Assembly: GCA_040754335.1 (NCBI GenBank)
Contig: JBFMCV010000002.1
Location: 558,001 to 622,000 of the forward strand
Length of the DNA: 64,000 nucleotides
Source of the DNA: Thermodesulfobacteriota bacterium
Lineage (GTDB): Bacteria > Desulfobacterota_D > UBA1144 > Nemesobacterales > UBA2774
Reading direction: 5' to 3'
Of this stretch, positions 1 through 58,198 are shown one piece after another. The first letter of the stretch is position 1, and each line of letters opens with the position of its first letter. A program made the position numbers and the translations under genes. The notes below the pieces were generated by a model that made no database searches, was not told the DNA's origin, and was given only the letters and a program-made list of their open reading frames with translations.

Positions 1-687
1 ACACCCGTTCGCCCTGAAGCGCAGAACCTGCGCTCGTATATGGTCCCTGTGTCGCTCCTAAGATTTAACCGAATTATGGAGCCAATCCAGAACTGCGCGC
101 CTGTCCTGAGCGTAGTCAAAGGATCGAAGGGTTGAACGGGTTTAACAAAGTGAAAGGAAAAATCCACCCTAGCCTAATTTGGCTTAGGCCACGAACAGCC
201 GCAAATTTATTTACTTTGGTGCCTTTGTCGTTAGGGTGTCCGGTTCTTACGCTTGCTCAGAACCGTTCTTTACGAAAGGAGGGGATGAAATTAATTGCAA
301 ATGATGAGATTGCCGCGCTTTCGGCTCGCAAAGACAGATTAAAGCGAGATGCTGAATAGATCCCGTGTCGTGGCACGGGACATGGTTCAGCATGACAGAT
401 AAATGCAAAAAAGATAGATTTCTCACGTGCGTTCGAAATGACAACGTTGAAAGACGAGATTCCCGATCGGCGTCGGGAATGACAGAAAGGAAGGGACGAG
501 ATTGCCGCGGTCGCTGTGCTCCCTCGCAAAGACACACTTCGACAAGCTCAGGGCGAACGGGTTTAAAAAAGCGAAAGAGAAAATCCTCCCTGACTCTCCT
601 TTTTCTAAGGAGGGAATTAAAGATGAAAAGCAAAAGATGAGATTGCTTCGCTTCGCTCGCAAAGACAAGAATGTAATGTTCCCCCCG
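1..687. repeat. Repeat mosaic with no gene
   Basis: No convincing gene. The segment holds, in order, an inverted L element inside an F repeat (about 5-125), a J element (175-267) inside an A repeat, then C, H, D, G, F, A and G units. Small open frames here are read through repeats. Confidence 0.75.
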
Positions 688-2063: not shown

Positions 2064-2474
2064 ATGATGACGGGAATGACTATGACGGAATTGACAGGGA
2101 GAGAATGGAGTCTGATGGGACGGATCGAGCACATAACCACGCAGCAGATAATCGGGGAGTGGGGGAGCATAGAGAATTTCGCGGCTTCGCACGGGGTGAG
2201 CCCGGCGTCGACCAAGATGGTGATATACGTGGACGGGGCGAAGAGCAGGCCCGTAGAGGATGCGCTCAGGAAGTACGGGTATCTCAACCTTCTCAGGTTC
2301 GAGAAGGAGCTCCGGAGGAGGGGGCAGACGTTTTCGGGGTACGTCGCGACTGACGGGCTCAACCCGGTGGAGCTGATAGAGACGCTCAGGATGAAGGAGC
2401 CGCACCCTGAGGTGGTGACGGGGCTCAAGAGGAGCGGGCTCTGGGAGGTGCTGGAAACAATTCCGAACGAGTGA
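2064..2474 (+). CDS. Hypothetical phage-associated protein
   Basis: About 136 residues, family not recognised. It is basic and mostly helical, with a segment (about residues 20-60) that could be a helix-turn-helix (TTQQIIGEWGSIENFAASHG). It lies between two DUF559 copies within the repressor-linked block. The first codons overlap a C-type repeat, so the true start may be a later ATG at 2076 or 2082. Codon use resembles neighbouring real genes (AGG, CTC, GAG). Confidence 0.65.
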   Translation: MMTGMTMTELTGREWSLMGRIEHITTQQIIGEWGSIENFAASHGVSPASTKMVIYVDGAKSRPVEDALRKYGYLNLLRFEKELRRRGQTFSGYVATDGLNPVELIETLRMKEPHPEVVTGLKRSGLWEVLETIPNE

Positions 2475-2664
2475 GGAATTGGTCGCCCCTGCTGATGAAG
2501 AGAGGAGTGAATGAATTATGGACGCGATGTTGAGAGAAAGGGAGAGGGGGAGGAGGGTGAATGATGAGTGGGGGTGTGCTTCGACAGGCTCAGCACGAAC
2601 GGGTTTTAAAGAATGAGACCCTGAAACGAGTTCAGGGTGACAAATAAATTGATGGGAGGCGGTC

Positions 2665-3129: not shown

Positions 3130-3551
3130 ATGAATATAGCCAATGCTCGCCAATTGAGGAAGAACCTGACGGATGCTGAAAAGAAATTATGGAGACATCT
3201 CCGTTTAAAGAATATCGGAGGAAACAAATTCTATTTTGTTTTATGTTAGTTGTTCGCGATGATCACTAGAGATTTATGCATTCAGCAGAGGGCATCCGGT
3301 TGCTCACTTGTTTGCAACCGTGGCAGCATCCAATCGGGAAATATGTAGTGGACTTTGTGTGTCTTGAGAAGAAATTGATAGTCGAAGTGGACGGTGGTCA
3401 ACACAGCGAGAATGTTGCTTATGATTCCGAACGGACAGCGTGGCTTGAATCCTGCGGCTACCGGGTTCTTAGATTCTGGAACAATGAAGTGCTTGAGGAT
3501 GTGAAGGCTGCTTTGGAAGCAATCATAAAAGTTTTAGAAGAAAGTGGATAG
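3130..3551 (+). pseudogene. DUF559 gene split by a J element
   Basis: The 5' part (3130-3231) encodes the same NARQLRKNLTDAEKKLW start as the intact gene at 1463 and runs to GGNKF. The frame then hits a stop inside an inserted segment (3232-3320), after which the DUF559 frame resumes at HPIGKYVVDFV and continues through VDGGQH and RFWNNEVL to a normal end. The insert begins TATTTTG and ends in the hairpin GGTTGC...GCAACC, which is the signature of the J elements found between genes elsewhere. This is direct evidence that a J element has inserted into a gene. Confidence 0.85.
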
Positions 3552-11490: not shown

Positions 11491-11648
11491 TAATTTGGTT
11501 TGTGTAACTCTCGCGCATAAGTAAATGAGCGTACTTGCAATCAGCCGATAGCGACCGGTTTAATTTGGCTTCACAAGATTTTCCCAAGGAAATGAGCTGC
11601 CTTGCTCTCATTCAGCAGCGACCAACTGCTCGCTCGATCGCAGTTGTT
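11491..11648. mobile_element. Nested J pair
   Basis: An outer J starts TAATTTGG at 11491 and reaches GCGACCGGTT, where a second J (TAATTTGGCTTC at 11561) begins and ends with CAACTGC...GCAGTTG at 11648. The outer right arm is missing. The outer element is nearly the same as the one at 11776. Confidence 0.7.
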
Positions 11649-11775
11649 TCGGGAATGACAGGATAAAAATCCCTCCTGACCTCCCTTTACGAAAGGGAGG
11701 AATAAAAGGAATCGCGGCAAGATGCCGCTCCTACGGGTGCGATGTAGCATGGGATTGACGCGGTCGCATACTGCG

Positions 11776-11868
11776 TAATTTGGTTTGTGTAACTCTCGCG
11801 CATAAGTAAATGAGCGTACTTGCAATCAGCCGATAGCGACCGGTTCTTGCACACGTTCGGAACCGTTC
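11776..11868. mobile_element. J element, uninterrupted
   Basis: TAATTTGG left end and the right hairpin CCGGTTCT...GGAACCG. It sits in the middle of a G repeat, between CATACTGCG and TCGCAAAGACAG. Confidence 0.7.
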
Positions 11869-13530: not shown

Positions 13531-13538
13531 AAGTTGTG

Positions 13539-13576: not shown

Positions 13577-13673
13577 TTCCGCGAATAAATTGCCCGCGAA
13601 GGTTTTATGAACGCCCGGTTAAAGCGGAAAAAATAGTATTCCAAATCTGGAATCATTTGATAGACTTTTTCTT

Positions 13674-14361: not shown

Positions 14362-15027
14362 TCAGTGGATCGTGTAGTCGCGGGCTCTTTGCGTGACGGC
14401 GGGGGCGGGCTCGCAGAAGAATTTGCCCGAGTGCGTTTCCTTCATCGTCCGGAGGTCGAGCGTCATTCCCTCGACGTAGAGCACTGCTTTCCCCTCCTTC
14501 TCCCATTTCTCCGCGTCGGGGCACGGTATGTTCTTCCGGGTGGCCTTGCTCGCCTTTAGCACGCGGTTATAGAGGAGCGTCCCGGCCTCGATCCTGGCGT
14601 CGGCGTACCAGTCGAAGTAGACCAGGCTCCGCTTCGCGGCGTCGATGACGAGCAGGCGCTTGTGGTCGCGCCCGGGCCACTCGTCTATGAGCAGGTAGCC
14701 CCCGTGCATTCCGGCGAACGTGTTGGCGCCCCCGAACTCGCCCGCGCTTATCGTGTAGTACGCGTTCCTCGCGGCGAGCGGGCACGGGTCGGGGACTCCG
14801 GAGCTGGGCTTGTAGACGTATATGTCCTGCCCCTCGAATGCTGGGGACTTTCTCGTATATATGATATATTTCGGATAGACGTAAGCGGTCCCGCCGCCGC
14901 ACTCCTTCTTCCACGCGGAGTCGGCGCCCGGTATCCCGAACCATCCGGCGAATTCTTCTCCATGTGCAAATGGGGTGAGTGCGATGAGCAGCGTTGATAA
15001 CAAGACGGCGGTGATATGCTTATGCAT
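14362..15027 (-). CDS. Secreted hypothetical protein, paralogue of 29007-29639
   Basis: 221 residues with a signal peptide ending near AHGEE (about residue 24). Shared with the protein at 29007 are YVYPKYIIYTRKSP / YVYREYTIYVRQTA, DIYVYKPS, a YYTISAGEF / YYSVPAGAA segment, YLLIDEW, and IPCPDAEKWEKEG / IPCPEASEWKQQG. Conserved cysteines suggest a disulfide-stabilised periplasmic or surface protein. Both copies are on the minus strand inside the IPTL array. Family not recognised. Confidence 0.75.
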   Translation of the reverse strand: MHKHITAVLLSTLLIALTPFAHGEEFAGWFGIPGADSAWKKECGGGTAYVYPKYIIYTRKSPAFEGQDIYVYKPSSGVPDPCPLAARNAYYTISAGEFGGANTFAGMHGGYLLIDEWPGRDHKRLLVIDAAKRSLVYFDWYADARIEAGTLLYNRVLKASKATRKNIPCPDAEKWEKEGKAVLYVEGMTLDLRTMKETHSGKFFCEPAPAVTQRARDYTIH

Positions 15028-15096
15028 GCTGAATAGGATACCGGCGGAGAGGAGGGGGGCAAGCGCGGGATAATGCTAGCCTTGTGTGAAAAACAT

Positions 15097-15126
15097 TTGC
15101 ATTATATTAACTATATTGGATAAGAT
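15097..15126 (+). promoter_or_regulatory. Promoter of IPTL genes 6-7
   Basis: TTGCAT, 18-bp spacer, TAAGAT at 15121-15126. Likely drives the two-gene unit that follows. Confidence 0.4.
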
Positions 15127-15174
15127 GCGGTATTGATGTAGAATGTGGATACTTTCCGCATTTAGGAGGATGAT

Positions 15175-15687
15175 ATGCACAGGAAATTTGCCCCCTTTTT
15201 CAGCCTTGTATTATTTGTAACTGTTGTTCTTGGCTTTTTTTTCGTTTCGGCGGAGAAAAGTGCCGCTCAGGGCTGTTTTATCGAAGTTACCAAGATAGCG
15301 CCAGGGGCGGAGGGCCAGGTCTTTGAATTCAACGGCGTGGTAGAAGGACAGAATATTTTTACATTTTTTGTCGCTGCGGGTGAAAGCACGTCGGGCTTTG
15401 CATCACCTGACCCGGCTACGATCACAGAAGTCCCTGTGGCAGGATGGGAGTTCGGAGGGATAGAATGTGAACCGGGGGGAGGAGTCGTCATACTTGAAGT
15501 ACTTGAGGATGGGTGGGTTGAGCAGTGCGTGAATCCGCAGGCTCCCACATTCTGCACGATATTCAACGATCCTGTGGCTGCGGCGATCCCCACGCTTTCG
15601 GAGTGGGGGATGATCGCGGCGGCGGCGGGACTGATGATGGTGGGAGCGTGGTTTGTTCTTAAAAGGAAAAAAGCACAGATCGTATAA
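15175..15687 (+). CDS. IPTL-CTERM surface protein 6
   Basis: 170 residues; AGGAGGATGAT precedes the ATG. Signal peptide ends KSAAQ (about residue 32). The domain starts CFIEVTKIAPGAEGQVFEF. It resembles protein 7 (ALEVTKIAEGAPEGQLFEF), which follows after 26 bp, so the two are probably a recent tandem duplicate transcribed together. The tail helix is followed by the lysine-rich LKRKKAQIV, not RRRK. Confidence 0.85.
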   Translation: MHRKFAPFFSLVLFVTVVLGFFFVSAEKSAAQGCFIEVTKIAPGAEGQVFEFNGVVEGQNIFTFFVAAGESTSGFASPDPATITEVPVAGWEFGGIECEPGGGVVILEVLEDGWVEQCVNPQAPTFCTIFNDPVAAAIPTLSEWGMIAAAAGLMMVGAWFVLKRKKAQIV

Positions 15688-15713
15688 ATAATATCTGCTT
15701 TTCGGAGGATGAA

Positions 15714-16229
15714 ATGCTGAGACAATCCAGACCGTTGTTCAGACTTCTCTTATTCTTCGTGGCCGCTGCCGGGGTGTTTTATTTTGGAACCGCGGAGGGA
15801 CGCGCCCAGGGGAACGCTTGTGCGTTAGAAGTGACGAAGATCGCCGAGGGGGCGCCTGAAGGTCAGCTCTTTGAATTTCAGGTGGAGTTAGATGGAAATA
15901 TAGGCTTTGCTGAATTTCCGGCGGGTATACCTGTCCCGGCCATATTTGGCCAAGCGGGGCCCGTGACTATTACAGAGATTCCCACACCCGGCTGGACTCT
16001 GGCGGACGTTGTCTGCGAACTCAACCCCGGAGTCACTGTAACGGAAATTGAAGGCGGCGCTATTTTCGAATGCCTGGACCCCGAGGGCGGTTTCAAGGGA
16101 GAGTGCACGTTCGTGAACGTGAGGGTTTCGAATATCCCGACGCTTTCGGAGTGGGGGATGATCGCGGCGGCGGCGGGACTGATGATGGCGGGAGTGTGGT
16201 TTGCGGTGAGGAGGAAGGTGCGTGCTTAG
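15714..16229 (+). CDS. IPTL-CTERM surface protein 7
   Basis: 171 residues; CGGAGGATGAA precedes the ATG. Signal peptide ends GRAQ (about residue 32). The domain starts CALEVTKIAEGAP and has a VTITEIPTPGWTL turn, EIEGGAIFEC and CTFVNV. Tail IPTLSEWGM, GLMMAGVWFAVRRKVRA, the shortest basic tail in the set. It is co-directional and close to protein 6. Confidence 0.85.
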   Translation: MLRQSRPLFRLLLFFVAAAGVFYFGTAEGRAQGNACALEVTKIAEGAPEGQLFEFQVELDGNIGFAEFPAGIPVPAIFGQAGPVTITEIPTPGWTLADVVCELNPGVTVTEIEGGAIFECLDPEGGFKGECTFVNVRVSNIPTLSEWGMIAAAAGLMMAGVWFAVRRKVRA

Positions 16230-16284
16230 AAAATAGCTGTCATTTCGAGCGTACGCGAGAAATCTGTTTTTTAGAAAGAATAAA

Positions 16285-16319
16285 GATAGATTTCTCACAC
16301 TTCGGTTCGAAATGACAAT
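16285..16319. repeat. H repeat exemplar
   Basis: AGATTTCTCACACTTCGGTT then CGAAATGACA. Other copies: about 415-442, 6975-7010, 56461-56498 and, read in frame, 4225-4262. Confidence 0.6.
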
Positions 16320-16388
16320 ATAAAAGACAAATCCTCCCTCACCCTCCTTTTTCAAAGGAGGGAATAAAAAGATGGAGTATAATTTGCA

Positions 16389-16430
16389 GAGCCTCTTTCC
16401 TCCAGTTCGGAGGAAGGGGCTTTTTTTATT
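16389..16430 (+). terminator. Intrinsic terminator
   Basis: AGAGCCTCTTTCCTCC-loop-GGAGGAAGGGGCTTTTTTT. Confidence 0.85.
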
Positions 16431-16507
16431 ATCAGGATAGAGAGGAGGGCCTACACGGGCAGGTGTAACTTTCCATAATCACTAATTCTTTCGGGAAGTC
16501 AAGGTAT

Positions 16508-16536
16508 TTGGTTTTTATTACCGGAAATAGTATAAT
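16508..16536 (+). promoter_or_regulatory. Promoter of IPTL gene 8
   Basis: TTGGTT, 17-bp spacer, TATAAT at 16531-16536. Confidence 0.6.
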
Positions 16537-16598
16537 GGTGTAAGCGGCTTCTGGCGTGAATTTAATGTCCGCGGATAAAAACTTTGCGGAGGATGGGC

Positions 16599-17351
16599 AT
16601 GGAAAGTATAAAGTCCGTGACAAAACTCCTATTCCCGGCCGCGCTCGTTGCGGTCGTGTTCCTCTCGTGGGCTCTCCCTGCCTCGGCTGGCGTAACATTT
16701 TTATTAGACAAGTCTGATTATATTGAGAACCATCCCAACCAGCTTGTGCAGAACTTCGACGCGGGGAAAGTCGATCCCGGACAGTATGAAACTTGCAACC
16801 AGCCTGTGGATGAGTTTAGCAACGACGACTGCTTCGAACCGGGTGACATATTCCCCGGTCTTGCATTCGAGACATTCCCGTTAGATGCGACCGTCATATT
16901 CCTGGGAGGAATAAATTTTCAAGGGGCGGCGAACCCTCAAAACGCGCTTGCCCGCGGGGGCGGACCGAGCACGTTTGAAATATTGTTCGAGGGCGGCGTG
17001 ACTACCGCGGGAATGGACATCGGGTGTTTTGCCGAGGGCAGCGGCTGCAATACGCTTCAGACGGTAAGGCTCCTCGACGCTAACGGCATTACCATCGATT
17101 CCATAGAAGTGAAAACCGACGACTTCTTCAGCACGTTCGTGGGATTCGATTCAACAGTCCCGGTGGTGAGGGTTGATATCTCGGGCCCGGAGGATATTGC
17201 GCAGGGCGTGGACGAGGTGAGGTTCGGGTTCGGACAACGCGTGTCTAATATCCCGACATTGTCCGAGTGGGGGATGATCGCGGCGGCGGCGGGACTGATG
17301 ATGGTTGGAGTGTGGTTCGCGGTGAGGAGAAGGAAGGCGCGGACTGTTTGA
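16599..17351 (+). CDS. IPTL-CTERM surface protein 8 with a different ectodomain
   Basis: 250 residues from ATG 16599 (GCGGAGGATGGGC upstream). Signal peptide ends PASAG (about residue 32). The ectodomain, about 185 residues, is unlike its neighbours: DKSDYIENHPNQLVQNFDAG, PGLAFETFPL, GINFQGAANPQNALARG and a VVRVDISGPEDIAQGVDEV strand pair. This resembles the jelly-roll-like ectodomains found on PEP-CTERM proteins. It has an ordinary IPTLSEWGM tail and GLMMVGVWFAVRRRKARTV. The same tail DNA on a different domain shows that the tail is modular. Confidence 0.83.
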   Translation: MESIKSVTKLLFPAALVAVVFLSWALPASAGVTFLLDKSDYIENHPNQLVQNFDAGKVDPGQYETCNQPVDEFSNDDCFEPGDIFPGLAFETFPLDATVIFLGGINFQGAANPQNALARGGGPSTFEILFEGGVTTAGMDIGCFAEGSGCNTLQTVRLLDANGITIDSIEVKTDDFFSTFVGFDSTVPVVRVDISGPEDIAQGVDEVRFGFGQRVSNIPTLSEWGMIAAAAGLMMVGVWFAVRRRKARTV

Positions 17352-17431
17352 ATCTGATTTCGTTCGTTGAAATAATGTAAACCCCCACCCAAACCCTCCC
17401 CATTAAATCAAGGGGGAGGGAAGAAAATAAG

Positions 17432-17456
17432 GAGTGGGGGATGATCGCGGCGGCTT
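17432..17456 (+). pseudogene. IPTL tail fragment R1
   Basis: GAGTGGGGGATGATCGCGGC is the 5' part of the tail code (E-W-G-M-I-A-A), 167 bp after the same point in gene 8 and directly behind a B repeat. Confidence 0.75.
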
Positions 17457-17492
17457 GATTCGGAAATAGAGTAAATAATCCAGGAGGATAAT

Positions 17493-18011
17493 ATGAAAAG
17501 AATGATCGGTGTTCGTGCTTTCGTTGCGACGGCGGCTCTGGCCGCGATTATGTTTTTCAGCGTTTCCGCCCACGCACAGCCCGGGCAATGCTTCATAGAA
17601 TTTTGCAAAGAAGCCGAGGGGGTAGTGGGCGTTCCGTTTCAGTTTATAACGTTCACGGAAGTCAATCCCGAGCCGGTGATTCGTGTGCTCGATTCTGGCG
17701 AATGCGTCTCTGTACAGCTGAGCTCCGGGGAAGGGGCCAGTACGCTGATCGAGCTGCCTACGGGCGGATGGTCGTTCTCGGGGGTCGAATGCGACGTAAC
17801 GGACGGGCTCACCGTCACCCCGATCGAGAACGGCGCCGAGATCGAATGTCAGCCTGGCTTCATCGTTGAGACCACTTGCACGATCTCAAACGTGCGTGCG
17901 GTGTCGTCCATTCCGACATTGAGCGAATGGGGCATGATCGCGGCGGCGGGGGGGCTGATGATTGTGGGAGTGTTCTTCGCAATAAGGAAGAGAAGAGCGT
18001 TTAATTCTTAA
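17493..18011 (+). CDS. IPTL-CTERM surface protein 9
   Basis: 172 residues; CAGGAGGATAAT precedes the ATG. Signal peptide ends SAHAQ (about residue 28). The domain starts CFIEFCKEAEGVVG and closes with TTCTISNV, with IELPTGGWSFSGVECD at the turn. The tail is IPTLSEWGM, then GLMIVGVFFAIRKRRAFNS*. The AFNS ending recurs in proteins 13 and 16 and in fragment R2. Confidence 0.85.
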   Translation: MKRMIGVRAFVATAALAAIMFFSVSAHAQPGQCFIEFCKEAEGVVGVPFQFITFTEVNPEPVIRVLDSGECVSVQLSSGEGASTLIELPTGGWSFSGVECDVTDGLTVTPIENGAEIECQPGFIVETTCTISNVRAVSSIPTLSEWGMIAAAGGLMIVGVFFAIRKRRAFNS

Positions 18012-18067
18012 AAGAAAAATATAAATCCCCCCGACCCCCCCTTTACGAAAGGGGGGAATGTAAGAAG

Positions 18068-18154
18068 GAATGGGGCATGATCGCGGCGGCTGCGGGATTA
18101 GGATTGGTGGGCATATTCTTTGCGGTGAAGAGAAGGAAGGCGTTTAATTCTTAA
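18068..18154 (+). pseudogene. IPTL tail copy R2
   Basis: Encodes EWGMIAAAAGLGLVG, a hydrophobic stretch, KRRKAFNS and stop. It starts 143 bp after the equivalent point in gene 9. No start codon or ribosome site of its own. Confidence 0.85.
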
Positions 18155-18211
18155 AAAGAGAAAAGAATAAATCCTCCCTAACCCTCCTTTTTCTAAGGAG
18201 GGAATTAAAGG

Positions 18212-18273
18212 CAGGGTTGGCGATGGCGGGAGTGTGGTTTGCGGTGAGGAGAAGGAAGGCGCGGACTGTTTGA
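18212..18273 (+). pseudogene. IPTL tail fragment R3
   Basis: 3' part only, ending VWFAVRRRKARTV and stop, the same ending as gene 8. Its 5' half is replaced by an A repeat. Confidence 0.8.
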
Positions 18274-18353
18274 ATCTGATTTCGTTCGTTGAAATAATGT
18301 AAACCCCCACCCAAACCCTCCCCCTTAAATCAAGGGGGAGGGAAGAAAATAAG

Positions 18354-18382
18354 GAGTGGGGGATGATCGCGGCGGCGGCGGG
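18354..18382 (+). pseudogene. IPTL tail fragment R4
   Basis: 5' part only (E-W-G-M-I-A-A-A), behind a B repeat. With R3 it duplicates the gene 8 end plus R1. Confidence 0.75.
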
Positions 18383-18402
18383 AGGGGGGATTTAAAATAA
18401 TC

Positions 18403-18431
18403 TTGAATTAAGACTGAATTTGATCTAAAAT
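18403..18431 (+). promoter_or_regulatory. Promoter of IPTL gene 10
   Basis: TTGAAT, 17-bp spacer, TAAAAT at 18426-18431. Confidence 0.6.
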
Positions 18432-18463
18432 CCGGTTTAATTACATGATTGAAGGAGGATTGC

Positions 18464-18979
18464 ATGTATAAAAAATCAGGCAGTTTTCTTGCTTTTCTTC
18501 TATTAATTTCCTTCACAGCAGGCGCAGTTCTCGTGACGGGCCCAGCTAAAGACGCATGGGGTCAGCAGGGGTGTCAGATCGAGGTTATCAAGGCGGCGAT
18601 AGGTGAGGATACGAGTTTCGATTTCACCCGCATGGAGGGGGACTTGGTCCTCGGGGGGTTCACTCTTGTCCCCTTCGATGGAGCTTTTGTTACGGTAATA
18701 GGGCCGGGTACCCCCCTCACGGTTGTTGAGAATGTGCCTGACGGATGGCGGCTCGAGGACGTAATCTGTTTCAACGACGGCGTAGCCATTGAAGAGATCG
18801 AGAACGGGTTTATTGCGACTTGCACAGCCCCGGGGGAAGGTTTTGCGGAATGCACATTCTATAACGTGCAGCTGGATGTGATACCCACGCTGTCCGAGTG
18901 GGGTATGATCGCGGCTGCGGCGGGGTTGATGATCGTCGGTGTGTTCTTTGCGGTGAGGAGGAGACGGGCGGCTGTTTGA
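18464..18979 (+). CDS. IPTL-CTERM surface protein 10
   Basis: 171 residues from ATG 18464 (GAAGGAGGATTGC upstream). Signal peptide ends DAWGQQ (about residue 34). Close paralogue of protein 2 in CQIEVIKAAIGED, VPDGWRLEDVICFNDG and EIENGFIATC, although the stretch between residues 55 and 85 differs. Tail IPTLSEWGM, GLMIVGVFFAVRRRRAAV. Confidence 0.85.
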   Translation: MYKKSGSFLAFLLLISFTAGAVLVTGPAKDAWGQQGCQIEVIKAAIGEDTSFDFTRMEGDLVLGGFTLVPFDGAFVTVIGPGTPLTVVENVPDGWRLEDVICFNDGVAIEEIENGFIATCTAPGEGFAECTFYNVQLDVIPTLSEWGMIAAAAGLMIVGVFFAVRRRRAAV

Positions 18980-19047
18980 TGCAAGATGCAGGATATGCTC
19001 TGCGGCCCGTTCATACTTCGACCCTTCGACTTCGCTCAGGACAGGCT

Positions 19048-19135
19048 CGCAGATCAGTATTATCCTTGCTCCTGTATTTGGCGAAAGCTGAGTAGTGACG
19101 GAGCAATCGCGTATGAGCGCAGATTCTGCGCCTCA
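19048..19135 (+). mobile_element. L element 2
   Basis: Nearly identical to 10627-10715 and in the same position within an F repeat. Confidence 0.65.
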
Positions 19136-19303
19136 GTACGAACGGGTTTATGGATTCCCGATCGGCGCCTGCCCTGAACCATGTCCCGTACTTGATACGG
19201 GATCTATTCAGGGTCGGGAATGACAGATGTTAAAAGACAAAACGAGATGCTGAATAGATCACGGCTCGCAGGCCGGGACGTCGTTCAGCATGACAAGAAT
19301 GCG

Positions 19304-19341
19304 GAAGCCTCTTCCTCCGGTGCGGGGAAGGGGCTTTTTTT
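19304..19341 (+). terminator. Intrinsic terminator
   Basis: AAGCCTCTTCCTCC-loop-GGGGAAGGGGCTTTTTTT. Confidence 0.8.
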
Positions 19342-19421
19342 GGTGAGGCCCTCAAGTTTCATCGAGCTGGACAGGCCGGGTTAACGGTCTGTTAACGAGG
19401 GATGTAATTAATTAAAACTGA

Positions 19422-19450
19422 TTGATTACTCCCTGAAAATATTGTAAAAT
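19422..19450 (+). promoter_or_regulatory. Promoter of IPTL gene 11
   Basis: TTAAAA, 17-bp spacer, TAAAAT at 19445-19450. Confidence 0.45.
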
Positions 19451-19481
19451 CTCCCCAAGAAGCTCTTAAAAGGAGGATCCA

Positions 19482-19988
19482 ATGAGGAAAGTTTCGAGCC
19501 TTTCTGCCTGTCTTTTTCTATTATTTTTAATCGTTTCAGTATATTCCATCACACTTTTAAAGACGCCCGACGCAAGCGCGCAGCAGTGCGGCATAGGCAT
19601 CGGGAAATCCGCGCCCGGCGGGGGTAGCACTGAATTCGGGTTCGAGTTCACGGTCGACGGCGACGGACCCAATTTCGGAACCTTAGCGGACGGACAGTCT
19701 GATGGCGGGGGTTTTTCATCGACCGTCGTCGTGACTGAGCTGCCGCTTGAGGGATGGGAGCTTGTGGACATAGATTGCGAGAGCATCGGCGGAATACTGT
19801 TCGAAATTACTGATAACGGTTTCACGGCTGAATGCGTTGGGATCGGCGAAGGGTTCTGTGTGTTTTTTAACGTGCAGACGAGGAATATCCCCACGCTTTC
19901 GGAGTGGGGTATGATCGCGGCGGCTGGGGGGCTGATGCTGGTGGGAGTGTGGTTTGCGGTGAGGAGAAGGAAGGCTTTAAACATATAA
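19482..19988 (+). CDS. IPTL-CTERM surface protein 11
   Basis: 168 residues; AAAAGGAGGATCC precedes the ATG. Signal peptide ends DASAQQ (about residue 29). The domain starts CGIGIGKSAPGGGSTEF and has VTELPLEGWELVDIDCES, close to protein 5 in this region, and CVFFNV. Tail IPTLSEWGM, GLMLVGVWFAVRRRKALNI. Confidence 0.85.
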   Translation: MRKVSSLSACLFLLFLIVSVYSITLLKTPDASAQQCGIGIGKSAPGGGSTEFGFEFTVDGDGPNFGTLADGQSDGGGFSSTVVVTELPLEGWELVDIDCESIGGILFEITDNGFTAECVGIGEGFCVFFNVQTRNIPTLSEWGMIAAAGGLMLVGVWFAVRRRKALNI

Positions 19989-20045
19989 AAGAATAAATAC
20001 AAATCCTCCCTTGCCCTCCTTTGCCAAAGGAGGGAATTAAAATAT

Positions 20046-20132
20046 AAATGGGGGATGATCGCGGCGGCGGGGGGATTAGGATTGGCAGGAGTGTTCTTCG
20101 CTATAAGGAAGAGAAGAGCGCAGATCGTTTAA
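20046..20132 (+). pseudogene. IPTL tail copy R5
   Basis: Complete tail code (WGMIAAAGGLGLAGV..., RKRRAQIV, stop) starting exactly 144 bp after the equivalent codon of gene 11, with an A repeat between. Confidence 0.85.
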
Positions 20133-20209
20133 ATACTGTTGATTTATAAATGTAAGGTAACACCCCCACCCCAACCCTCCCCCCTTGATATGGGGAGGGA
20201 AATTAAAAG

Positions 20210-20240
20210 GAGTGGGGGATGATCGCGGCGGCTGGGGGAG
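20210..20240 (+). pseudogene. IPTL tail fragment R6
   Basis: 5' part only (E-W-G-M-I-A-A-A-G-G) behind a B repeat (about 20155-20205). Confidence 0.75.
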
Positions 20241-20273
20241 GCAGATATTCAATAGAGTATTGAGGAGGAAATT

Positions 20274-20783
20274 ATGCGTAAGGTTATCGCATCGATCTTG
20301 AGTTTTTTTCTTTTCCTTTTCGCTATATCCAGCGTATTTGCTGACAGGGCGGAGGCCGGCGGCGGTCAGCAAGCTTGTTCGATCGCGATCGCCAAAGAGG
20401 CAACTGTAGCGGGCATACTTTTCGAATTCCTCGTGGAGCCGTCGGTTGGGGATGATTTAATGATCAATACGGTTTCAGGTTCGTCGACCGGGTTTAATTT
20501 GAACTTCGGTCAGTCAGCCGTCGTATCCGAGATCGTGCCCGAGGGATGGAGGCTCGTTGACGTCACTTGTGAATCCGGTCCCGGTATTGCCATAATCATC
20601 GACGAAGAAAACAACGTGCTGATTAATTGCCTGACCGTCAGTGAGGGCGTATGCACTTTTACAAACGTACCGGCGGAGAACATACCCACGCTCAGCGAAT
20701 GGGGGATGATCGCGGCGGCTGGGGGGTTGATGATTGTGGGAGTGTGGTTTGCGGTGAGGAGAAGAAGGGGAAGGGCTGTCTGA
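20274..20783 (+). CDS. IPTL-CTERM surface protein 12
   Basis: 169 residues; GAGGAGGAAATT precedes the ATG. Signal peptide ends near ADRAEAGG (about residue 30). The domain starts CSIAIAKEATVAG and has VSEIVPEGWRLVDVTCESG and CTFTNV. Tail IPTLSEWGM, GLMIVGVWFAVRRRRGRAV. The gene follows fragment R6 by only about 30 bp, so its promoter must overlap the repeat zone or be shared. Confidence 0.85.
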   Translation: MRKVIASILSFFLFLFAISSVFADRAEAGGGQQACSIAIAKEATVAGILFEFLVEPSVGDDLMINTVSGSSTGFNLNFGQSAVVSEIVPEGWRLVDVTCESGPGIAIIIDEENNVLINCLTVSEGVCTFTNVPAENIPTLSEWGMIAAAGGLMIVGVWFAVRRRRGRAV

Positions 20784-21032
20784 CGAAGGATGCACGATGC
20801 AGGATGAAAAAACGAGATCCTGAAACAAGTTCAGGATGACAAGAATGTGAAATTCCCGATCGGTGCCTGCCCTGAACCGTGTCCCGTACTTGATACGGGA
20901 TCTATTCAGGGTCGGGAATGACAACCTTTGAAATCCCCCTTAGTCCCTCCTTCGACCCTTCGTCCTTCGACAGGCTCAGGATGAACGGAGCTCAGGACAG
21001 GCTCTTTTTCTAAGGGGGGAATGAAATGATAA

Positions 21033-21120
21033 GCGGGGGATGATCGCGGCGGCGGCCGGGCTGATGCTGGCGGGAGTGTGGTTTGCGGTACGCAGAAGAA
21101 AGATGCAGGATGCGGGATAA
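21033..21120 (+). pseudogene. IPTL tail copy R7
   Basis: GMIAAAAGLMLAGVWFAV, RRRKMQDAG and stop. The ending is that of proteins 1 and 5, not of the gene directly upstream. Confidence 0.8.
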
Positions 21121-21140
21121 AAGACGAGATTGCCGCGCTG

Positions 21141-21245
21141 CACTCGTATTCACTCGTAGATATATACGGAAAGTTCTTTGCAATGCATAGTTACTTTCTC
21201 ATACTCGGCCGAGAGCGACCGATTCCTCCCTCGGTCGAAATCGTT
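21141..21245. mobile_element. J element in a G repeat
   Basis: Lies between GAGATTGCCGCGCTGC and CTCGCAATGACAGG. The right hairpin is GACCGATTCCTC...GAAATCGTT; the left end is less like the consensus. Confidence 0.5.
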
Positions 21246-21367
21246 GCTCGCAATGACAGGCAACTGAAAATGTAAACCCTCTCACCGAAGAGATGATTTC
21301 GGCGGAGGCGAGTCAGAGAAGGATTGTTAAAAAATAATGCTATCAAACTTTTTTTCAGGAGGATCGT

Positions 21368-21874
21368 ATGCGTAACGTGTTAAATACATTATTGGGGCTT
21401 TCGCTCTTTGTTTTCGTAATACTCGGCATCTCGGGCAGCGCGAGCGCGCAGCAGTGTTTCCTGGAAATATGCAAGTTCGCGGAAGGCGCAGGAGAGACGG
21501 GCTTTACGATCAATTTCGACGAGGGAGGACAGACATTCTCGGTGGAGCTCTTCGACGGCGGCGATTGTTTTACAGAGTCTTTTGGTCCGTCACCCGATCT
21601 TGAGGTGACTGAAACGCCAACGCCTGGCTGGACGCTCCTAGATGTCGTCTGCCAAGGCAGCAGCGATATCTCGTTTACGAGCATACCAGAAGGTATAGAC
21701 GCCGATTGCAACACGACGGCAGAGGCATCAGCGACATGCACGTTCGTAAATGGACGGGGAGTGGCAGCTAATGTTCCAACGCTTTCTGAATGGGGGATGA
21801 TCGCGGCGGCGGGGGGATTAGTCTTGATCGGCGTGTTCTTCGCTCTTAGGAGAAGAAGAGCGTTTAATTCTTAA
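21368..21874 (+). CDS. IPTL-CTERM surface protein 13
   Basis: 168 residues; CAGGAGGATCGT precedes the ATG. Signal peptide ends SASAQQ (about residue 25). The domain starts CFLEICKFAEGAGETGF, with the ETPTPGWTLLDVVCQGS turn and CTFVNG. The tail is the variant VPTLSEWGM (Val for Ile), GLVLIGVFFALRRRRAFNS. No clear -35/-10 pair could be placed upstream. Confidence 0.85.
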   Translation: MRNVLNTLLGLSLFVFVILGISGSASAQQCFLEICKFAEGAGETGFTINFDEGGQTFSVELFDGGDCFTESFGPSPDLEVTETPTPGWTLLDVVCQGSSDISFTSIPEGIDADCNTTAEASATCTFVNGRGVAANVPTLSEWGMIAAAGGLVLIGVFFALRRRRAFNS

Positions 21875-21929
21875 AGGAAGAGAAAAATCCCCCCGACCCC
21901 CCCTTTACGAAAGGGGGGAATGAAAAGAT

Positions 21930-29763: not shown

Positions 29764-30297
29764 ATGGCCAGACTCGCGATACGGTTTTTCCTTATGTTTT
29801 CAGTAGCTTCCGGCTTTCTGACACTATCGTCGCAGGGAGGGGAGATAATTATCCCCCCTGGAAATTGCGCATTTGCCATTTTTAAACTTACACCGCAATT
29901 CGAAGGCTCTATACCGTTCGAATTCATCCAGTCGGTGAACGGGGTCGAAACCCAGATCACTGTCAACTCGAATTTCGTAGGGCCGCCCGATTTTATTTTC
30001 GTCGACCAGGGAGACACCGTAAGCTTCACGGAGCTGCCGCAGGAAGGGTGGACACTTGAGGAGATCGACTGCTTCGAGGGAGTTGGCGTCGAGATCACGA
30101 AGTCTGAGGACTCCGTAACCTTCGAATGCGTCAATCCGGTCGGTGAATTATCCGGTGCGTTCTGCGGCTTCTTTAACAGGGTGTCGGCGGATAAGATTCC
30201 GACGCTGTCTGAGTGGGGAATGATCTCAGCCGCGGCGGGGCTGGGATTGATAGGTGTGTTCTTTGCGGTGCGGAGGAGAAGGGCGATTAATTCTTAA
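29764..30297 (+). CDS. IPTL-CTERM surface protein 14
   Basis: 177 residues from ATG 29764 (GAGGAGGATTGG upstream). Signal peptide ends near SSQGGE (about residue 24). The domain starts CAFAIFKLTPQ and is closely related to protein 16: both have IPFEFIQ / VPFEFIQ, NGVET, the ELPQEGWTLEEI turn and DSVTFECVNP. Tail IPTLSEWGMISAAAG ending RRRRAINS. It begins a three-unit 144-bp tandem repeat of its own 3' end. Confidence 0.85.
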   Translation: MARLAIRFFLMFSVASGFLTLSSQGGEIIIPPGNCAFAIFKLTPQFEGSIPFEFIQSVNGVETQITVNSNFVGPPDFIFVDQGDTVSFTELPQEGWTLEEIDCFEGVGVEITKSEDSVTFECVNPVGELSGAFCGFFNRVSADKIPTLSEWGMISAAAGLGLIGVFFAVRRRRAINS

Positions 30298-30354
30298 AGA
30301 AAGAAATGCAAATCCCCCCGAACCCCCCTTTAAGAAAGGGGGGAATGAAAAGAT

Positions 30355-30441
30355 GAGTGGGGGATGATCTCGGCGGCGGCGGGATTGGGATTGATAGGCG
30401 TGTTCTTCGCGGTGAGAAGGAGAAGGGCGATTAATTCTTAA
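30355..30441 (+). pseudogene. IPTL tail copy R10
   Basis: Full tail code from E-W-G-M to RRRRAINS and stop, 144 bp after gene 14's copy; same ending and same following A-like repeat. Confidence 0.88.
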
Positions 30442-30498
30442 AGAAAGAAATGCAAATCCCCCCGAACCCCCCTTTAAGAAAGGGGGGAATGAAAAGAT

Positions 30499-30585
30499 GA
30501 GTGGGGAATGATCTCAGCCGCAGCGGGGCTTGGGCTGATCGGAGTGTTCTTTGCGGTGCGGAGGAGAAGGGCGCAGTCTGTATAA
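30499..30585 (+). pseudogene. IPTL tail copy R11
   Basis: Full tail code, 144 bp after R10, but ending RRRRAQSV, a different tail. Confidence 0.88.
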
Positions 30586-30701
30586 AAGCGACCAAGAAGA
30601 GATAGAAGATGAGATCTTGAGTTGGATCAAGATGATTGAAAAATTGAGCTCCTTTCCTCAGGGAAGGAGTTAAAGCAGCTAGATCTTTGAGGAGGATTGG
30701 A

Positions 30702-31214
30702 ATGGTTAAATTCATATTCAATTCTTTGGTTATCCTGCTAACGGCCGCGGGGATGCTGGCGATTACGGCCGGTACCGGCTTTTCACAGCAAGACCAGTGC
30801 AGAATTGTCATTACAAAATCTACTGAGCCCGATTCTTCGGAGGTGTTCGATTTCATCAGCATCGTCAACGGTGTCGAAACACAATTTAGTGTGGCCGCTG
30901 GTGGTCAGGAGGACGGCGCGATAGTAAACGAGGGAGAGTCCGTCATTGTGACCGAGGTGCCGCGTGAGGGATGGCGGCTCGAAGAGGCCGATTGTTTTTT
31001 CCTCGACGGAGCGGTAGCCCTGCCATACCCGGGCGGTGTTCAGGTTTTGTGCACCGAGGGGGGAGAGTTTAACGGCGCAAACTGCATTTTCCGCAACAGG
31101 CAGATTCCTGAAATTCCCACGCTCTCCGAGTGGGGTATGATCTCTGCGGCGGCGGGGCTTGGATTGATCGGCGTGTTCTTTGCTGTGAGGCGGAGGAGGA
31201 TGCACGCTGTTTGA
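30702..31214 (+). CDS. IPTL-CTERM surface protein 15
   Basis: 170 residues from ATG 30702 (TTGAGGAGGATTGG upstream). Signal peptide ends near GFSQQ (about residue 28). The domain starts CRIVITKSTEPDSSEVFDF, with EVPREGWRLEEADCFF and CIFRNRQ. Tail IPTLSEWGMISAAAG, GLIGVFFAVRRRRMHAV. No separate promoter is obvious; it could be read from the promoter of gene 14. Confidence 0.85.
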   Translation: MVKFIFNSLVILLTAAGMLAITAGTGFSQQDQCRIVITKSTEPDSSEVFDFISIVNGVETQFSVAAGGQEDGAIVNEGESVIVTEVPREGWRLEEADCFFLDGAVALPYPGGVQVLCTEGGEFNGANCIFRNRQIPEIPTLSEWGMISAAAGLGLIGVFFAVRRRRMHAV

Positions 31215-31260
31215 TTTAGTCGGATCTTTTATAAAGTAAGGTAAACCCCCACCCGATCCT

Positions 31261-31432
31261 GATTTGGTTTAGGTGAGATTGAGTCTGTGGTCGATGTGTT
31301 TTGTGCCTTCGTTCGAGGGCGACCGATTGCGCAATTTGTATTAATGTTCCAATTACCATACACACTCCCTCAATAGTAATCAGCCGGAAGTGACCAGTTC
31401 TTACGCTTGCTCAGAACTGTTGCTTGCAATCG
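31261..31432. mobile_element. Nested J pair
   Basis: Outer arms GACCGATTGC (to about 31330) and GCTTGCAATCGT (from about 31421) pair with each other. Between them an inner J runs from AATTTGTATT to the hairpin CCAGTTCT...AGAACTG. Confidence 0.7.
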
Positions 31433-31688
31433 TCTCTCAAGGGAGAGGGAAAAAGCAATCGCGTCTGGAAGCCGCTCCTACAGCTTATTAAAGGCGAGAT
31501 TCCCGATCAGGTCGGGAATGACAAAGAAAAGAATGAGATTGCCGCGTCGCATACTGCGCTCCTCGCAACGACAGGCCAGGGCGATATTGCCGCGGTCGCG
31601 ATCCTGACACGGGGAAAGGGTTTCTTTTAAGAGTATTTGCGTCCCCGTACGGGGCGATCGGGGGCCGGTAACTGCCTGCTCCATAATA

Positions 31689-31717
31689 TTGAAAAAATTG
31701 TCCCGAAATCGTATAAT
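31689..31717 (+). promoter_or_regulatory. Promoter of IPTL gene 16
   Basis: TTGAAA, 17-bp spacer, TATAAT at 31712-31717; one of the best in the set. Confidence 0.7.
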
Positions 31718-31746
31718 TGATCAACTTGTCTTGAAGGAGGATCGAT

Positions 31747-32277
31747 ATGGTTAAACACTCTTTGAGATTTTTCCTTATGATTACAGTGGTTTCCTGTTTT
31801 ATGGCTGTTTCGGCGAGAGCCGGGGTGTTCCAGATACCTGATGACAATTGTGGATTTGCAATTATTAAAGTCACGCCCCAGACGGAAAGCGTACCTTTCG
31901 AATTCATACAGAACCTGAACGGGGTCGAAACCGAGATCACTCTCTTCTCGAATCCCGAGAAAGAGCCCGAAATCCTGTTCCTCGACCAGGGGGACTTCTT
32001 AACATTCACGGAGCTGCCCCAGGAAGGGTGGACGCTCGAGGAAATAACATGTTTCGAAGGCGCGGGCGTGGATATAACCCAGACCGAGGACAGCGTGACA
32101 TTCGAATGCGTCAACCCGGCCGGAGAATTTTCGCTGGCGTTCTGCCTGTTCGCCAACAGGATTTCTGCGGACAAGATTCCGACGCTGTCTGAGTGGGGAA
32201 TGATCTCAGCCGCGGCGGGGCTGGGATTGATAGGTGTGTTCTTCGCTCTTCGCAGGAGAAGGGCGTTTAATTCTTAA
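31747..32277 (+). CDS. IPTL-CTERM surface protein 16
   Basis: 176 residues; GGAGGATCGAT precedes the ATG. Signal peptide ends SARAG (about residue 25). Sister of protein 14 across the whole domain (CGFAIIKVTPQ, ELPQEGWTLEEITCFEG, DSVTFECVNPAGE). About 75 bp of tail-coding DNA are almost identical to gene 14 while the ectodomains differ more. Ends LRRRRAFNS. Confidence 0.86.
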   Translation: MVKHSLRFFLMITVVSCFMAVSARAGVFQIPDDNCGFAIIKVTPQTESVPFEFIQNLNGVETEITLFSNPEKEPEILFLDQGDFLTFTELPQEGWTLEEITCFEGAGVDITQTEDSVTFECVNPAGEFSLAFCLFANRISADKIPTLSEWGMISAAAGLGLIGVFFALRRRRAFNS

Positions 32278-32327
32278 AAGATAAATCCCCCTTAATCCCC
32301 CTTTTTCTAAGGGGGAAATGGAAAGAT

Positions 32328-36944: not shown

Positions 36945-37435
36945 TGGTGCGACGCAGGGTGTGTGTATGTTGGTTAATACAAAAGCGAGACCCTGAAACG
37001 AGTTCAGGGTGACAAGATTTATTAGTTATTTTAAGGTACACCCCTACCCTGAAACAAGTTCAGGGCAGGCTCCTGGCCCTCCCCCCTATGCAGGCGAGGG
37101 AAGTAAAGAGAACAAATAAATCCTCCCTGGCCATTTTGACTCAAGCAGCATATAGCCGGGAGTTGATTTGCACTTGAGCCGTTGTTGTAAATGCGACCGG
37201 TTTAATTTGGCTTCACAGGATTTTCCCAAAGGAATGGGCGATCTTGCACTCAGCCAGCGGCGACCAATTGCTTGCTTGCTCGCAATTGTTTCACGCTCAG
37301 AACCGTTATCCGGGAATGACAGAATATTAAATCCACCCTAGCCCTCCTTTACAAAAGGAGGGAACTAAAGGCAAAGAATATATTTCTCGCCCGGCTCGAA
37401 ATGACGGATTAAAAGTTATGGATGGTTGAGAGTGG
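36945..37435. repeat. Repeat mosaic with a nested J pair
   Basis: C (36986-37016), a B repeat opened by C (about 37033-37105), the J pair (37133-37307) lying between the left part of an A repeat and a D-like end, then A (37329-37368) and H units. Confidence 0.7.
37133..37307. mobile_element. Nested J pair
   Basis: The outer J runs from ATTTTGAC to GCGACCGGTT, then an inner J (TAATTTGGCTTC, ending CCAATTGCT...CGCAATTG) interrupts it, then TCACGCTCAGAACCGTT restores the outer hairpin. Confidence 0.75.
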
Positions 37436-41428: not shown

Positions 41429-41517
41429 CGGTTCGTTTGACAGTTACTATTAGCAAAGATCAGTCGCATTTCCGCCATTTTTCAAGTGCGACCAATTCCT
41501 CGCACGCTCGAAATCGT
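41429..41517. mobile_element. J element in a G repeat
   Basis: Between GAGATTGCCGCGTCGCTACG and CTCGCAATGACG; right end GCGACCAATTCCTCGC...CGAAATCGTT. A related unit follows at about 41601-41692 (AATTTGACAG to CCGATTCC...GAAATCG). Confidence 0.5.
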
Positions 41518-41855
41518 TCTCGCAATGACGATGTGGGGAGGCAGAGGAGGTTCACTAGAATCGGATATGAGCACACATTGTGTGCCGCAGATTCCGCGCC
41601 GTAAATTTGACAGTAGGAAATATCAGAGCCAAGAAAGCATCATGCATGCTATTAGGAGAGAGAGACCGATTCCTCACTCGTTCGAAATCGTTCAGTAATG
41701 TCCCTATTGCCCGCCGTAAAACGGCGGGCAATAGTAGAATTATAAGTTGCTACCTCGCCATGTTAATGAGCTTGGGTGGGTATATTACTGTAAATCCCCC
41801 ACCCAGACACTCCCCCTTTCTAAAAAGGGGGGGAAATTGTTGAGAGTGGTTCGAG

Positions 41856-48474: not shown

Positions 48475-48649
48475 TAATTTGGATTTACTAACTGCGTTAC
48501 TCCGATTAAGGCATTTCTTTGCCATTTATCAACACCGACCAATTCCTCCGATTTGGCTTCAGCGACATTGGGTGGATGGATGATACGTTCGTGCCCTCAA
48601 CCAGGTGTGACCAATTCCTCGCTTGCTCGGAATTGTTGCTCGGAATTGT
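48475..48649. mobile_element. Nested J pair inside an A repeat
   Basis: A-repeat halves AAATCCACCCTAA and CCTCCTTTTTCTAAGGAGGG flank it. Outer J arms GACCAATTCCTCCG and TGCTCGGAATTGTC enclose an inner J that runs from ATTTGGCTTCAG to CCAATTCCTCGC...CGGAATTG. Confidence 0.78.
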
Positions 48650-53880: not shown

Positions 53881-54434
53881 GGAGGGCTGAGTTCGCCGTA
53901 TTAGAGAACGCCGGGGTTTCCTTCCAGGGAAAGTCGAGATTCCCATTAAAACTTCGGGAATGACAGAAAAAAATTAGATTGCCGCGGTCGCTTTGCTCCC
54001 TCGCAAAGACAGATCAAAGAAATGAAAACAAAGACGAGATGCTGAATATCTTGGATTCTTCAAGGGATAACCGGGGAATAATTGCATCGTTGCAATCTAC
54101 CTCATGTGTCCGGTTCTTGCTAATTTGGCTACTGTAACGATGGTATGACGTGATATTTCCGTGCGTGCTCTCAACCATTAGAGACCATTTCTTCGCTCGC
54201 TCAGAAATGTTGTTCAGAACCGTAGTTCAGCATGACAATATTTGTGGATCCCCGACTAAAGCGTTAGGGAATGACGCCGTTCTATCCTTCGACAAGCTCA
54301 GGACGAACGGGTTGGATTGAGCAGATTAGGTGTCCGCGGGTGCACACCCGCCGCAAATTCTGTAATGTCGGGGGAAGGCAAAATAAAATCCTACCTATCC
54401 CTCCTTTACGAAAGGAGGGAATTAAAAAGAAAGA
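53881..54434. repeat. Gap with doubly nested J in a C repeat
   Basis: D and G units, then GAGATGCTGAA and CAGCATGACAA halves of a C repeat enclosing a J pair (54047-54223). Then D, F (about 54286-54312), a GCGGGTGcacACCCGC hairpin joined to a MITE right-end remnant (about 54333-54372), and A (54388-54425). Confidence 0.75.
54047..54223. mobile_element. Nested J pair inside a C repeat
   Basis: Outer arms GTCCGGTTCTTGC (ends 54120) and TTCAGAACCGT (from about 54213) pair with each other. The inner J starts TAATTTGGCTAC at 54121 and ends with CCATTTCT...AGAAATG. Confidence 0.8.
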
Positions 54435-57597: not shown

Positions 57598-58198
57598 GGG
57601 GATTGGCAGTTTTGCGCATGTCTGGAGAAGGCTTTCTTGATTGAATGAATAATAATGTACACCCCCACCCGAACAATTTTGGCTTAGGCAACTTAGTCCC
57701 GGAAGTTTATGGGCTTCAGTAACGTTGCTGAGATAGCGACCAGTTGCTCGCTTGCTTGCAACTGTCCCCCCTTGTTAGGGGGAGGGAATTATCAAGAGGA
57801 CGAACGGGTGAGGTGCGGGCGTAGAGAGACATAACCCGTCCATGCTTCGATCCTTCGACGGGCTCAGGACAGGCTAAGCTCAGCACGAACGGGTTTTGTT
57901 ATCGCGGCTGGAAGCCGCTCCTACGGATTTAAAAGACGAGATTCCCGATCGGTTCCTGAACCATCTCCTGAATACTGAATCAAGTTCAGCACAGGCTTGT
58001 TTCAGGATCTATTCAGGAAAGCCGCTCCTACAAAATTAATCTAAATTAGAAAGGCGATTAAATTTTCGGGAATGACAAATTAAATAATTCTCTCTGACCC
58101 TCCCACGAGTGTTCGTATTGATTAGCCGAGATAAATAAATTGTGTAAAATAATTTCTATTGTCTCACGCGGCGGGCACGAGAAGGGAGCTTGTGGAGA
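57598..58198. repeat. Gap with J in a B repeat
   Basis: B halves ACACCCCCACCCGAAC and CCCCCCTTGTTAGGGGGAGG enclose a J element (57675-57765). F units, E (57902-57926), D and C composites follow. The last 100 bp before the next gene are unique. Confidence 0.7.
57675..57765. mobile_element. J element in a B repeat
   Basis: AATTTTGGCTTAGG left end; right hairpin GACCAGTTGCT...TGCAACTGT. Confidence 0.75.

What the first reader, a model, noticed from the sequence alone, without database searches (positions are those of the whole stretch)
54047..54223. J elements inserted inside the hairpin of other J elements
Five loci (11491, 31261, 37133, 48475, 54047) hold a J whose terminal hairpin is split by a second J. 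At 54047 the arms CCGGTTCTTGC and TCAGAACCG flank a complete inner J, all within a C repeat, giving three nested layers. The inner left end is always A(A/T)TTTG. Seen directly; a site-specific, self-targeting insertion is inferred.
Basis: seen in the sequence. Interest (0 to 1): 0.78.

Follow-up and report, generated by a model that had tools for sequence, protein, structure and literature searches.

The report
Tiny DNA repeats nested in hairpins
In one family of uncultured bacteria (Candidatus Dadabacteria), a roughly 90-letter gene-less DNA repeat has repeatedly inserted itself into the tips of DNA hairpins, including the hairpin at the end of its own copies, although no known transposition enzyme is shared by the genomes that carry it.

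Summary
J is a ~90-nt element (T[A/T][A/T]TTTGG ... 7-bp terminal hairpin ... CGTT), abundant in one GTDB family of Candidatus Dadabacteria (14 of 60 genomes searched, all in that family; own genome at least 71 copies). The nested layout is real: excising an inner J restores a same-strand outer J for 17/98 own copies and 6/88 copies from relatives, always at the apex of the terminal hairpin (random excisions 0/1960). At 54047 the layers are CTGAA hairpin > J > J; deeper nests exist. Four of the five listed loci are complete; 11491 lacks the outer 3' arm. Across species, seven host hairpins occur with and without J (1-7 loop nt replaced). Two inner pairs are 98% and 95% identical inside outers only 78% and 62% identical, so inner copies moved independently. 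Orientation in host repeats is fixed (40:1); J strand follows GC skew, not neighbouring genes. The 5' body predicts the host-hairpin class (95% vs 14%). No Y1, IS110, TnpB or reverse-transcriptase gene is shared by J-rich genomes. Best reading: a non-autonomous, structure-targeting, probably ssDNA-based element with unknown machinery, closest to CGTC-type REPs and cyanobacterial SDRs. Enzyme, and gain versus loss per site, unproven.

The parts
54036..54046 (+). left arm of CTGAA-class host hairpin (GAGATGCTGAA)
   Evidence: simple host repeats with the same paired stem variants (TG..CA, TC..GA) counted
54047..54120 (+). outer J, 5' part, ending in left hairpin arm CCGGTTCTTGC
   Evidence: profile positions 3-73; simple forms L016, L017, L027
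54121..54212 (+). inner J, complete, own terminal hairpin at about 54186-54209
   Evidence: (profile 2-88)
54213..54223 (+). outer J, 3' hairpin arm TTCAGAACCGT
   Evidence: restored on excision, E=9e-10
54224..54236 (+). right arm of host hairpin (AGTTCAGCATGAC)
48475..48549 (+). outer J 5' part in an AATCCACCC/GGAGGGAATT host repeat
48550..48637 (+). inner J (left end GATTTGG)
48638..48649 (+). outer J 3' arm GCTCGGAATTGT
37133..37202 (+). outer J 5' part
37203..37290 (+). inner J
37291..37307 (+). outer J 3' arm TCACGCTCAGAACCGTT
31260..31331 (+). outer J 5' part in a CACCC/GGGAGAGGG (B) host repeat
31333..31421 (+). inner J, diverged 5' half
   Evidence: profile 41-89 scored
31422..31433 (+). 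outer J 3' arm GCTTGCAATCGT
11491..11560 (+). outer J 5' part, cut at CCGGTT; 3' arm absent
   Evidence: identical over 93 nt (with host arm) to the simple copy at 11752-11879
11561..11649 (+). inner J followed by half of another repeat (TCGGGAATGACAG)
11775..11866 (+). simple J in a GATTGCC-class host repeat
174..267 (+). simple J in a GGAGGG (A) host repeat
3231..3322 (+). simple J
21169..21244 (+). partial or diverged J
41451..41517 (+). partial or diverged J in a GATTGCC-class repeat
41636..41691 (+). partial or diverged J
57674..57766 (+). simple J in a B host repeat
2457..2492 (-). J 3' end, the only minus-strand copy found in the window

Best explanation
J is a small non-autonomous mobile element. 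Shown: its ends are fixed (TTTGG at the left, CGT(T) after a 7-bp covarying terminal hairpin at the right); it occupies the apex of stem-loops that exist without it in related species, in one orientation, replacing about 1-7 loop nucleotides and leaving no target duplication; because it ends in a hairpin, its own copies are targets, which gives J-in-J and J-in-J-in-J nests; J has distinct lineages, each largely confined to one host-hairpin class, one of them to J hairpins. Inferred: insertion happens on single-stranded DNA, most likely on the lagging-strand template at the replication fork where hairpins can extrude, because J and host repeats share a strand bias that follows GC skew and not gene direction. 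Not known: the enzyme. Either a lost or unrecognised recombinase, or host repair or recombination proteins (a conserved third Xer-like recombinase is one untested candidate), acts on the hairpin tip.
For: Nesting by excision: 17/98 and 6/88, same strand, profile positions 67-74, control 0/1960. Independent movement: inner pairs 0.98/0.95 identical, outers 0.78/0.62, host classes differing in one pair. Interspecies host hairpins with and without J: L090, L045 and L230 (same site), L047, L051, C2:170446, C2:293853, C2:636281; at L090 and C2:293853 the recipient's own loop bases run up to the J end. Orientation in host repeats 40:1. GC-skew strand bias: skew >0.02, 80:23; skew < -0.01, 3:20; Fisher p=1e-8; stratified by neighbouring gene directions p=8.5e-7. 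Body-to-host-class agreement 95% vs 14% shuffled. Recent dispersal: copies 94-97% identical on different contigs with unrelated outer flanks. Terminal stem covaries: 6 of 7 pairs with changes on both sides. Confined to one GTDB family; pattern hits only in Dadabacteria.
Against: No transposase partner: Y1 occurs only in G000 among the J-rich genomes and sits beside GTAG-type repeats, not J; IS110, RVT_1 and TnpB are absent from nearly all or all of them. At L055 the whole composite (host plus J) is present or absent, so some copies move or vanish with the host repeat. Gain was not polarised against loss at any single site. The amount of loop lost varies, which is unusual for a transposase. GC skew is only a proxy for replication direction, and J's strand bias may be inherited from the host repeats, which show the same bias. 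One copy scored opposite in orientation.
Confidence: 0.6

Rival explanations
1. Composite amplification: J entered each host class once, and host arms plus J (and nested forms) then spread as one palindromic unit.
For: J lineages match host classes; L055 shows a whole composite present in one species and absent in another; three-layer CTGAA composites like 54047 recur at C2:258474 and C1:673216 and in G001 and G002.
Against: Host hairpin retained without J at seven orthologous sites; inner J nearly identical inside strongly diverged outers, once in different host classes; host stem variants in J-bearing repeats resemble those of simple repeats.
Confidence: 0.2
2. Template switching or gene conversion between hairpins with matching arms copies J from one host repeat into another without any transposase.
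For: Explains host-class confinement, fixed orientation, lack of target duplication, absence of a common transposase, and strand bias at forks.
Against: At L090 and C2:293853 the recipient's loop bases continue up to the exact J end, so exchange would have to begin at the J boundary rather than in the arms; inner J in unlike outers share only short hairpin arms.
Confidence: 0.25
3. J is a miniature derivative of an IS200/IS605-type (Y1/RAYT) transposon.
For: Terminal hairpin, no target duplication, GC-skew strand bias, and one RAYT in G000.
Against: No Y1 gene in J-rich G001, G002, G003, G005, G006, G009; the single RAYT is flanked by GTAG-type repeats; no conserved target word on the left; a hairpin at one end only.
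Confidence: 0.1
4. J is a miniature IS110/IS1111 element guided by an encoded bridge RNA.
For: IS110-type elements are known to target REP palindromes (general knowledge) and J has class-specific bodies.
Against: No DEDD transposase in G000, G002, G003, G005, G006, G009; no excess complementarity between J bodies and their own flanks (permutation fraction 0.2-0.8).
Confidence: 0.03

Closest known systems
CGTC-tagged REPs, including Neisseria dRS3 and Rickettsia RPE-4/6 (Di Nocera et al. 2013, PMC3733652)
   Same: The main host repeats (TGTCATTCCCGA..TCGGGAATC and kin) fit the description: TGTC/CGTC tag, stem starting A-T, short loop, no dedicated transposase. That paper also reports REP dimers inside longer palindromes.
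   Different: J is about 90 nt, asymmetric, has fixed ends and class-specific bodies, and sits in the loops of such REPs and of other hairpins; nesting within itself is not reported in the passages read.
SDR elements of Nostoc and relatives (Elhai et al. 2008, Genome Res 18:1484; paper not held, recalled; cited in PMC4390886)
   Same: Very small, apparently mobile, hairpin-forming repeats of unknown machinery; from memory, some lie within copies of themselves. PMC4390886 states that SDR5 inserts precisely between the third and fourth bases of HIP1.
   Different: SDRs are recalled as 21-27 nt in cyanobacteria; J is about 90 nt in Dadabacteria and targets hairpin tips. No sequence comparison was made.
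IS200/IS605 elements and RAYT-mobilised REPs/REPINs
   Same: Terminal hairpin, no target duplication, strand bias expected of ssDNA targets.
   Different: No Y1 gene in most J-bearing genomes, no GTAG tag, no conserved target word.
Group IIC introns and other retroelements that insert near stem-loops
   Same: Hairpin-directed insertion.
   Different: No reverse transcriptase domain in any J-bearing genome searched; J is far too short for an intron.

Membership tests
IS200/IS605 or RAYT-dependent miniature element | Y1 (HUH) transposase in the carrying genomes | tested here: not met
   PF01797 absent from G001-G003, G005, G006, G009; present once in G000 beside GTAG-type repeats
IS200/IS605 or RAYT-dependent miniature element | insertion 3' to a conserved short target word | tested here: not met
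   left flank differs by host class
IS200/IS605 or RAYT-dependent miniature element | replication-strand bias | tested here: met
   J strand follows GC skew within gene-direction strata, p=8.5e-7; GC skew used as a proxy
IS110/IS1111-derived miniature element | DEDD transposase in the carrying genomes | tested here: not met
   PF01548 absent from G000, G002, G003, G005, G006, G009; one in G001
IS110/IS1111-derived miniature element | guide complementarity to the target | tested here: not met
   no class-specific complementarity
Retroelement or group II intron derivative | reverse transcriptase in the genome | tested here: not met
   RVT_1 absent from all J-bearing genomes searched
Described RNA family | match to an Rfam covariance model | tested here: not met
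   no hit at gathering score in the window
Classic MITE of a DDE transposon | terminal inverted repeats and target-site duplication | tested here: not met
   left TTTGG and right CGT ends are not inverted repeats; no duplication at seven compared sites
CGTC REP (host repeats, not J) | C/TGTC tag, 8-9 bp stem starting A-T, short loop, no dedicated transposase | tested here: met
   host repeats as read against the description in PMC3733652; judged by eye, for the GATTCCC-type repeats
SDR element | 21-27 nt, sequence family of Nostocales | not tested
   source paper not held; J differs in length and host

The most novel reading that the evidence does not exclude
A class of tiny ssDNA elements that recognise DNA hairpin tips by structure, with host-class choice carried by their 5' body, moved by machinery that is neither a Y1, IS110, TnpB-associated nor reverse-transcriptase system, and able to build stacks of themselves because each copy carries its own target.
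Probability: 0.35. Interest if true: 0.85.

Novelty: new variant of a known kind. Interest (0 to 1): 0.66.

Why it matters
How REP-like palindromes without a dedicated transposase spread is an open question (stated for CGTC REPs in PMC3733652). J gives a readable record: empty and filled hairpins at orthologous sites, fixed polarity, strand bias, and nested layers that date events relative to one another. If hairpin tips are the true target, any hairpin becomes a landing site and self-nesting follows automatically, which could help explain mosaic intergenic regions in several phyla.

Tried and rejected
Rfam: nothing. RAYT in G000 as driver: flanked by GTAG-type repeats and absent from the other J-rich genomes. 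IS110, reverse transcriptase and TnpB as drivers. Guide-RNA-like complementarity of J body to flanks: no signal. Generic duplex energy of J flanks against random genomic positions: uninformative because coding DNA differs in G+C. Conserved RNA structure of the body: only the terminal hairpin and, in some classes, the host stem are clearly predicted. A larger autonomous element with J ends: none noticed in the stretches read; the left-only partial hits inspected on C2 were outers of nests. Ortholog of the 54047 locus in G006: flanking genes kept but no J found there, so no direct empty site for that locus.

Full report
Observation. At 54047-54223 the sequence is as described: a CTGAA-class hairpin (GAGATGCTGAA ... 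TTCAGCATGAC) holds an outer J whose terminal hairpin (CCGGTTCTTGC ... TTCAGAACCG) is split by a complete second J. The loci at 31260, 37133 and 48475 have the same layout. A profile built from J copies finds these layers independently: outer copies stop at profile positions 68-73 and inner copies begin at 1-3 (at 31260 only the 3' half of the inner copy scores).

Statistics of nesting. Full-length J copies were cut out in a script and the joined flanks searched again. In 1.46 Mb of this genome 17 of 98 excisions, and in relatives' loci 6 of 88, restore a J spanning the cut; all 23 lie on the same strand as the inner copy and all cuts fall at positions 67-74 of 87, the tip of the terminal hairpin; 0 of 1960 random excisions did so. 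Deeper nests exist: C2:534717-535020 in this genome has three J inside a TTCCCGA-class repeat, and L047 (G003) has at least three J nested in a B repeat whose syntenic place in this genome seems to hold a single J (orthology there is likely, not certain, because the matching flank is short and repeat-like).

Anatomy. J is about 90 nt: T[A/T][A/T]TTTGG, a variable body, a G[C/T]G[A/T]CC motif, a 7-bp stem with an 11-nt loop, then CGTT. Six of the seven stem pairs show changes on both sides with pairing kept. No structure shared by all classes was found in the body. Nothing in the window matches Rfam.

Hosts. J lies between the arms of several palindromic repeat classes: GATTGCC..GCAATGACA, GATTCCC..GGGAATGACA, GATTTC..GAAATGACA, CTGAA..TTCAG, AATCCTCCC..AAGGAGGG (two insertion points, used by two J lineages), CACCC..GGGAGAGGG, and J's own hairpin. 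The nearest relative of a J body sits in the same host class in 95% of cases against 14% for shuffled labels, even when copies more than 88% identical are ignored; the terminal hairpin carries much less of this signal. No base-pairing between bodies and their own flanks beyond that with other classes was found. Orientation relative to hosts with readable polarity is 40 to 1.

Distribution. A DNA pattern of the J hairpin hit 26 loci in the GTDB-based collection, all Candidatus Dadabacteria.

Evidence for movement. Syntenic intervals between species show the host hairpin with J in one genome and without J in another at seven sites: L090, L045 (shared by L230), L047, L051, and C2:170446, C2:293853 and C2:636281. 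Example: G003 GGTCGCAAAG|TAATTTGG...AAATCGT|CCTCGCAATGACA against this genome GGTCGCAAAG-TGCGCTC-CCTCGCAATGACA. One to about seven loop bases are replaced in the clear cases and nothing is duplicated. In one case (L055) the whole composite is absent from the other genome. Inner J copies in C2:258474 and C1:673216 are 98% identical while their outers are 78% identical; inner copies in L105 and L061 are 95% identical while their outers are 62% identical and lie in different host classes. Copies 94-97% identical with unrelated outer flanks lie on different contigs. Direction (gain or loss) at single sites was not established.

Strand. On contigs C1 and C2, J lies on the G-rich strand where skew is above 0.02 (80 to 23) and on the opposite strand where skew is below -0.01 (3 to 20); the relation holds overall when stratified by the arrangement of neighbouring genes (odds ratio 16, p=8.5e-7). 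Host repeats share the bias. The G-rich strand is, from general knowledge, usually the lagging-strand template, where hairpins can form in single-stranded DNA. This makes a replication-coupled ssDNA mechanism attractive but is inference.

Machinery. Y1 transposases, IS110 transposases, reverse transcriptases and TnpB-type proteins are missing from all or nearly all J-rich genomes, several of which are 92-98% complete. The single RAYT of this genome (NF047646) is flanked by GTAG-type repeats. All genomes searched carry tyrosine recombinases, among them, in this genome and G002, a third Xer-like 292-aa protein beside an rpoD-like gene. Similar-length hits occur in genomes with few J, so it is only a candidate.

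Comparison. The GATTCCC-type hosts fit the CGTC REP superfamily, for which no transposase is known and for which insertion of REPs within palindromes has been noted (PMC3733652). Very small cyanobacterial SDR elements, recalled as nesting within themselves, are the nearest behavioural parallel, but the source paper was not available. J fails at least one tested defining feature of every transposon family considered.

Verdict. A real, clade-restricted, hairpin-tip-targeting small mobile element with self-nesting. The machinery is unknown; composite spread contributes but cannot explain the nests on its own.

Noticed in passing
L050:330-620; L030 (C1:164546) about 240-530; C2 about 72470-72660 (minus strand); C2:420602: Short J-like units lie in tandem directly after tRNA genes, each unit ending in a copy of the last ~14 nt of the tRNA (e.g. 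TCCCTCCGGGCGCG), so here the target end is duplicated, unlike in hairpins.
   Followed up: partly
L031:1276-1902 (G000 C8 near 99575): Single RAYT-type transposase gene flanked by GTAGGAGCGGC..GCCGCGAT palindromes, the only Y1 gene of this genome.
   Followed up: yes
C2:520000-640000: Host palindromes without regard to J are as strongly strand-biased as J (TGACA-type motifs 129:10, GGAGGGAA motifs 65:3 in three 40-kb bins), and J is far denser here than in most of C1.
   Followed up: partly
window 9500-21900 and 30150-32300: Many repeated gene ends coding for a PTLSEWG..RRR-like C-terminal tail (looks like IPTL-CTERM sorting signals) next to A- and B-type repeats; recognised by eye only.
   Followed up: no
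L297:1678-2556 (G000 C3 near 310516), L298:1091-1969: A third Xer-like tyrosine recombinase of 292 aa in a conserved place between purN-like and rpoD-like genes; scores well below the XerC/XerD cut-offs.
   Followed up: partly
window 11467-11560 and 11752-11845: 93 nt identical between a simple J copy and a J broken by an inner J, pointing to a recent local duplication.
   Followed up: partly
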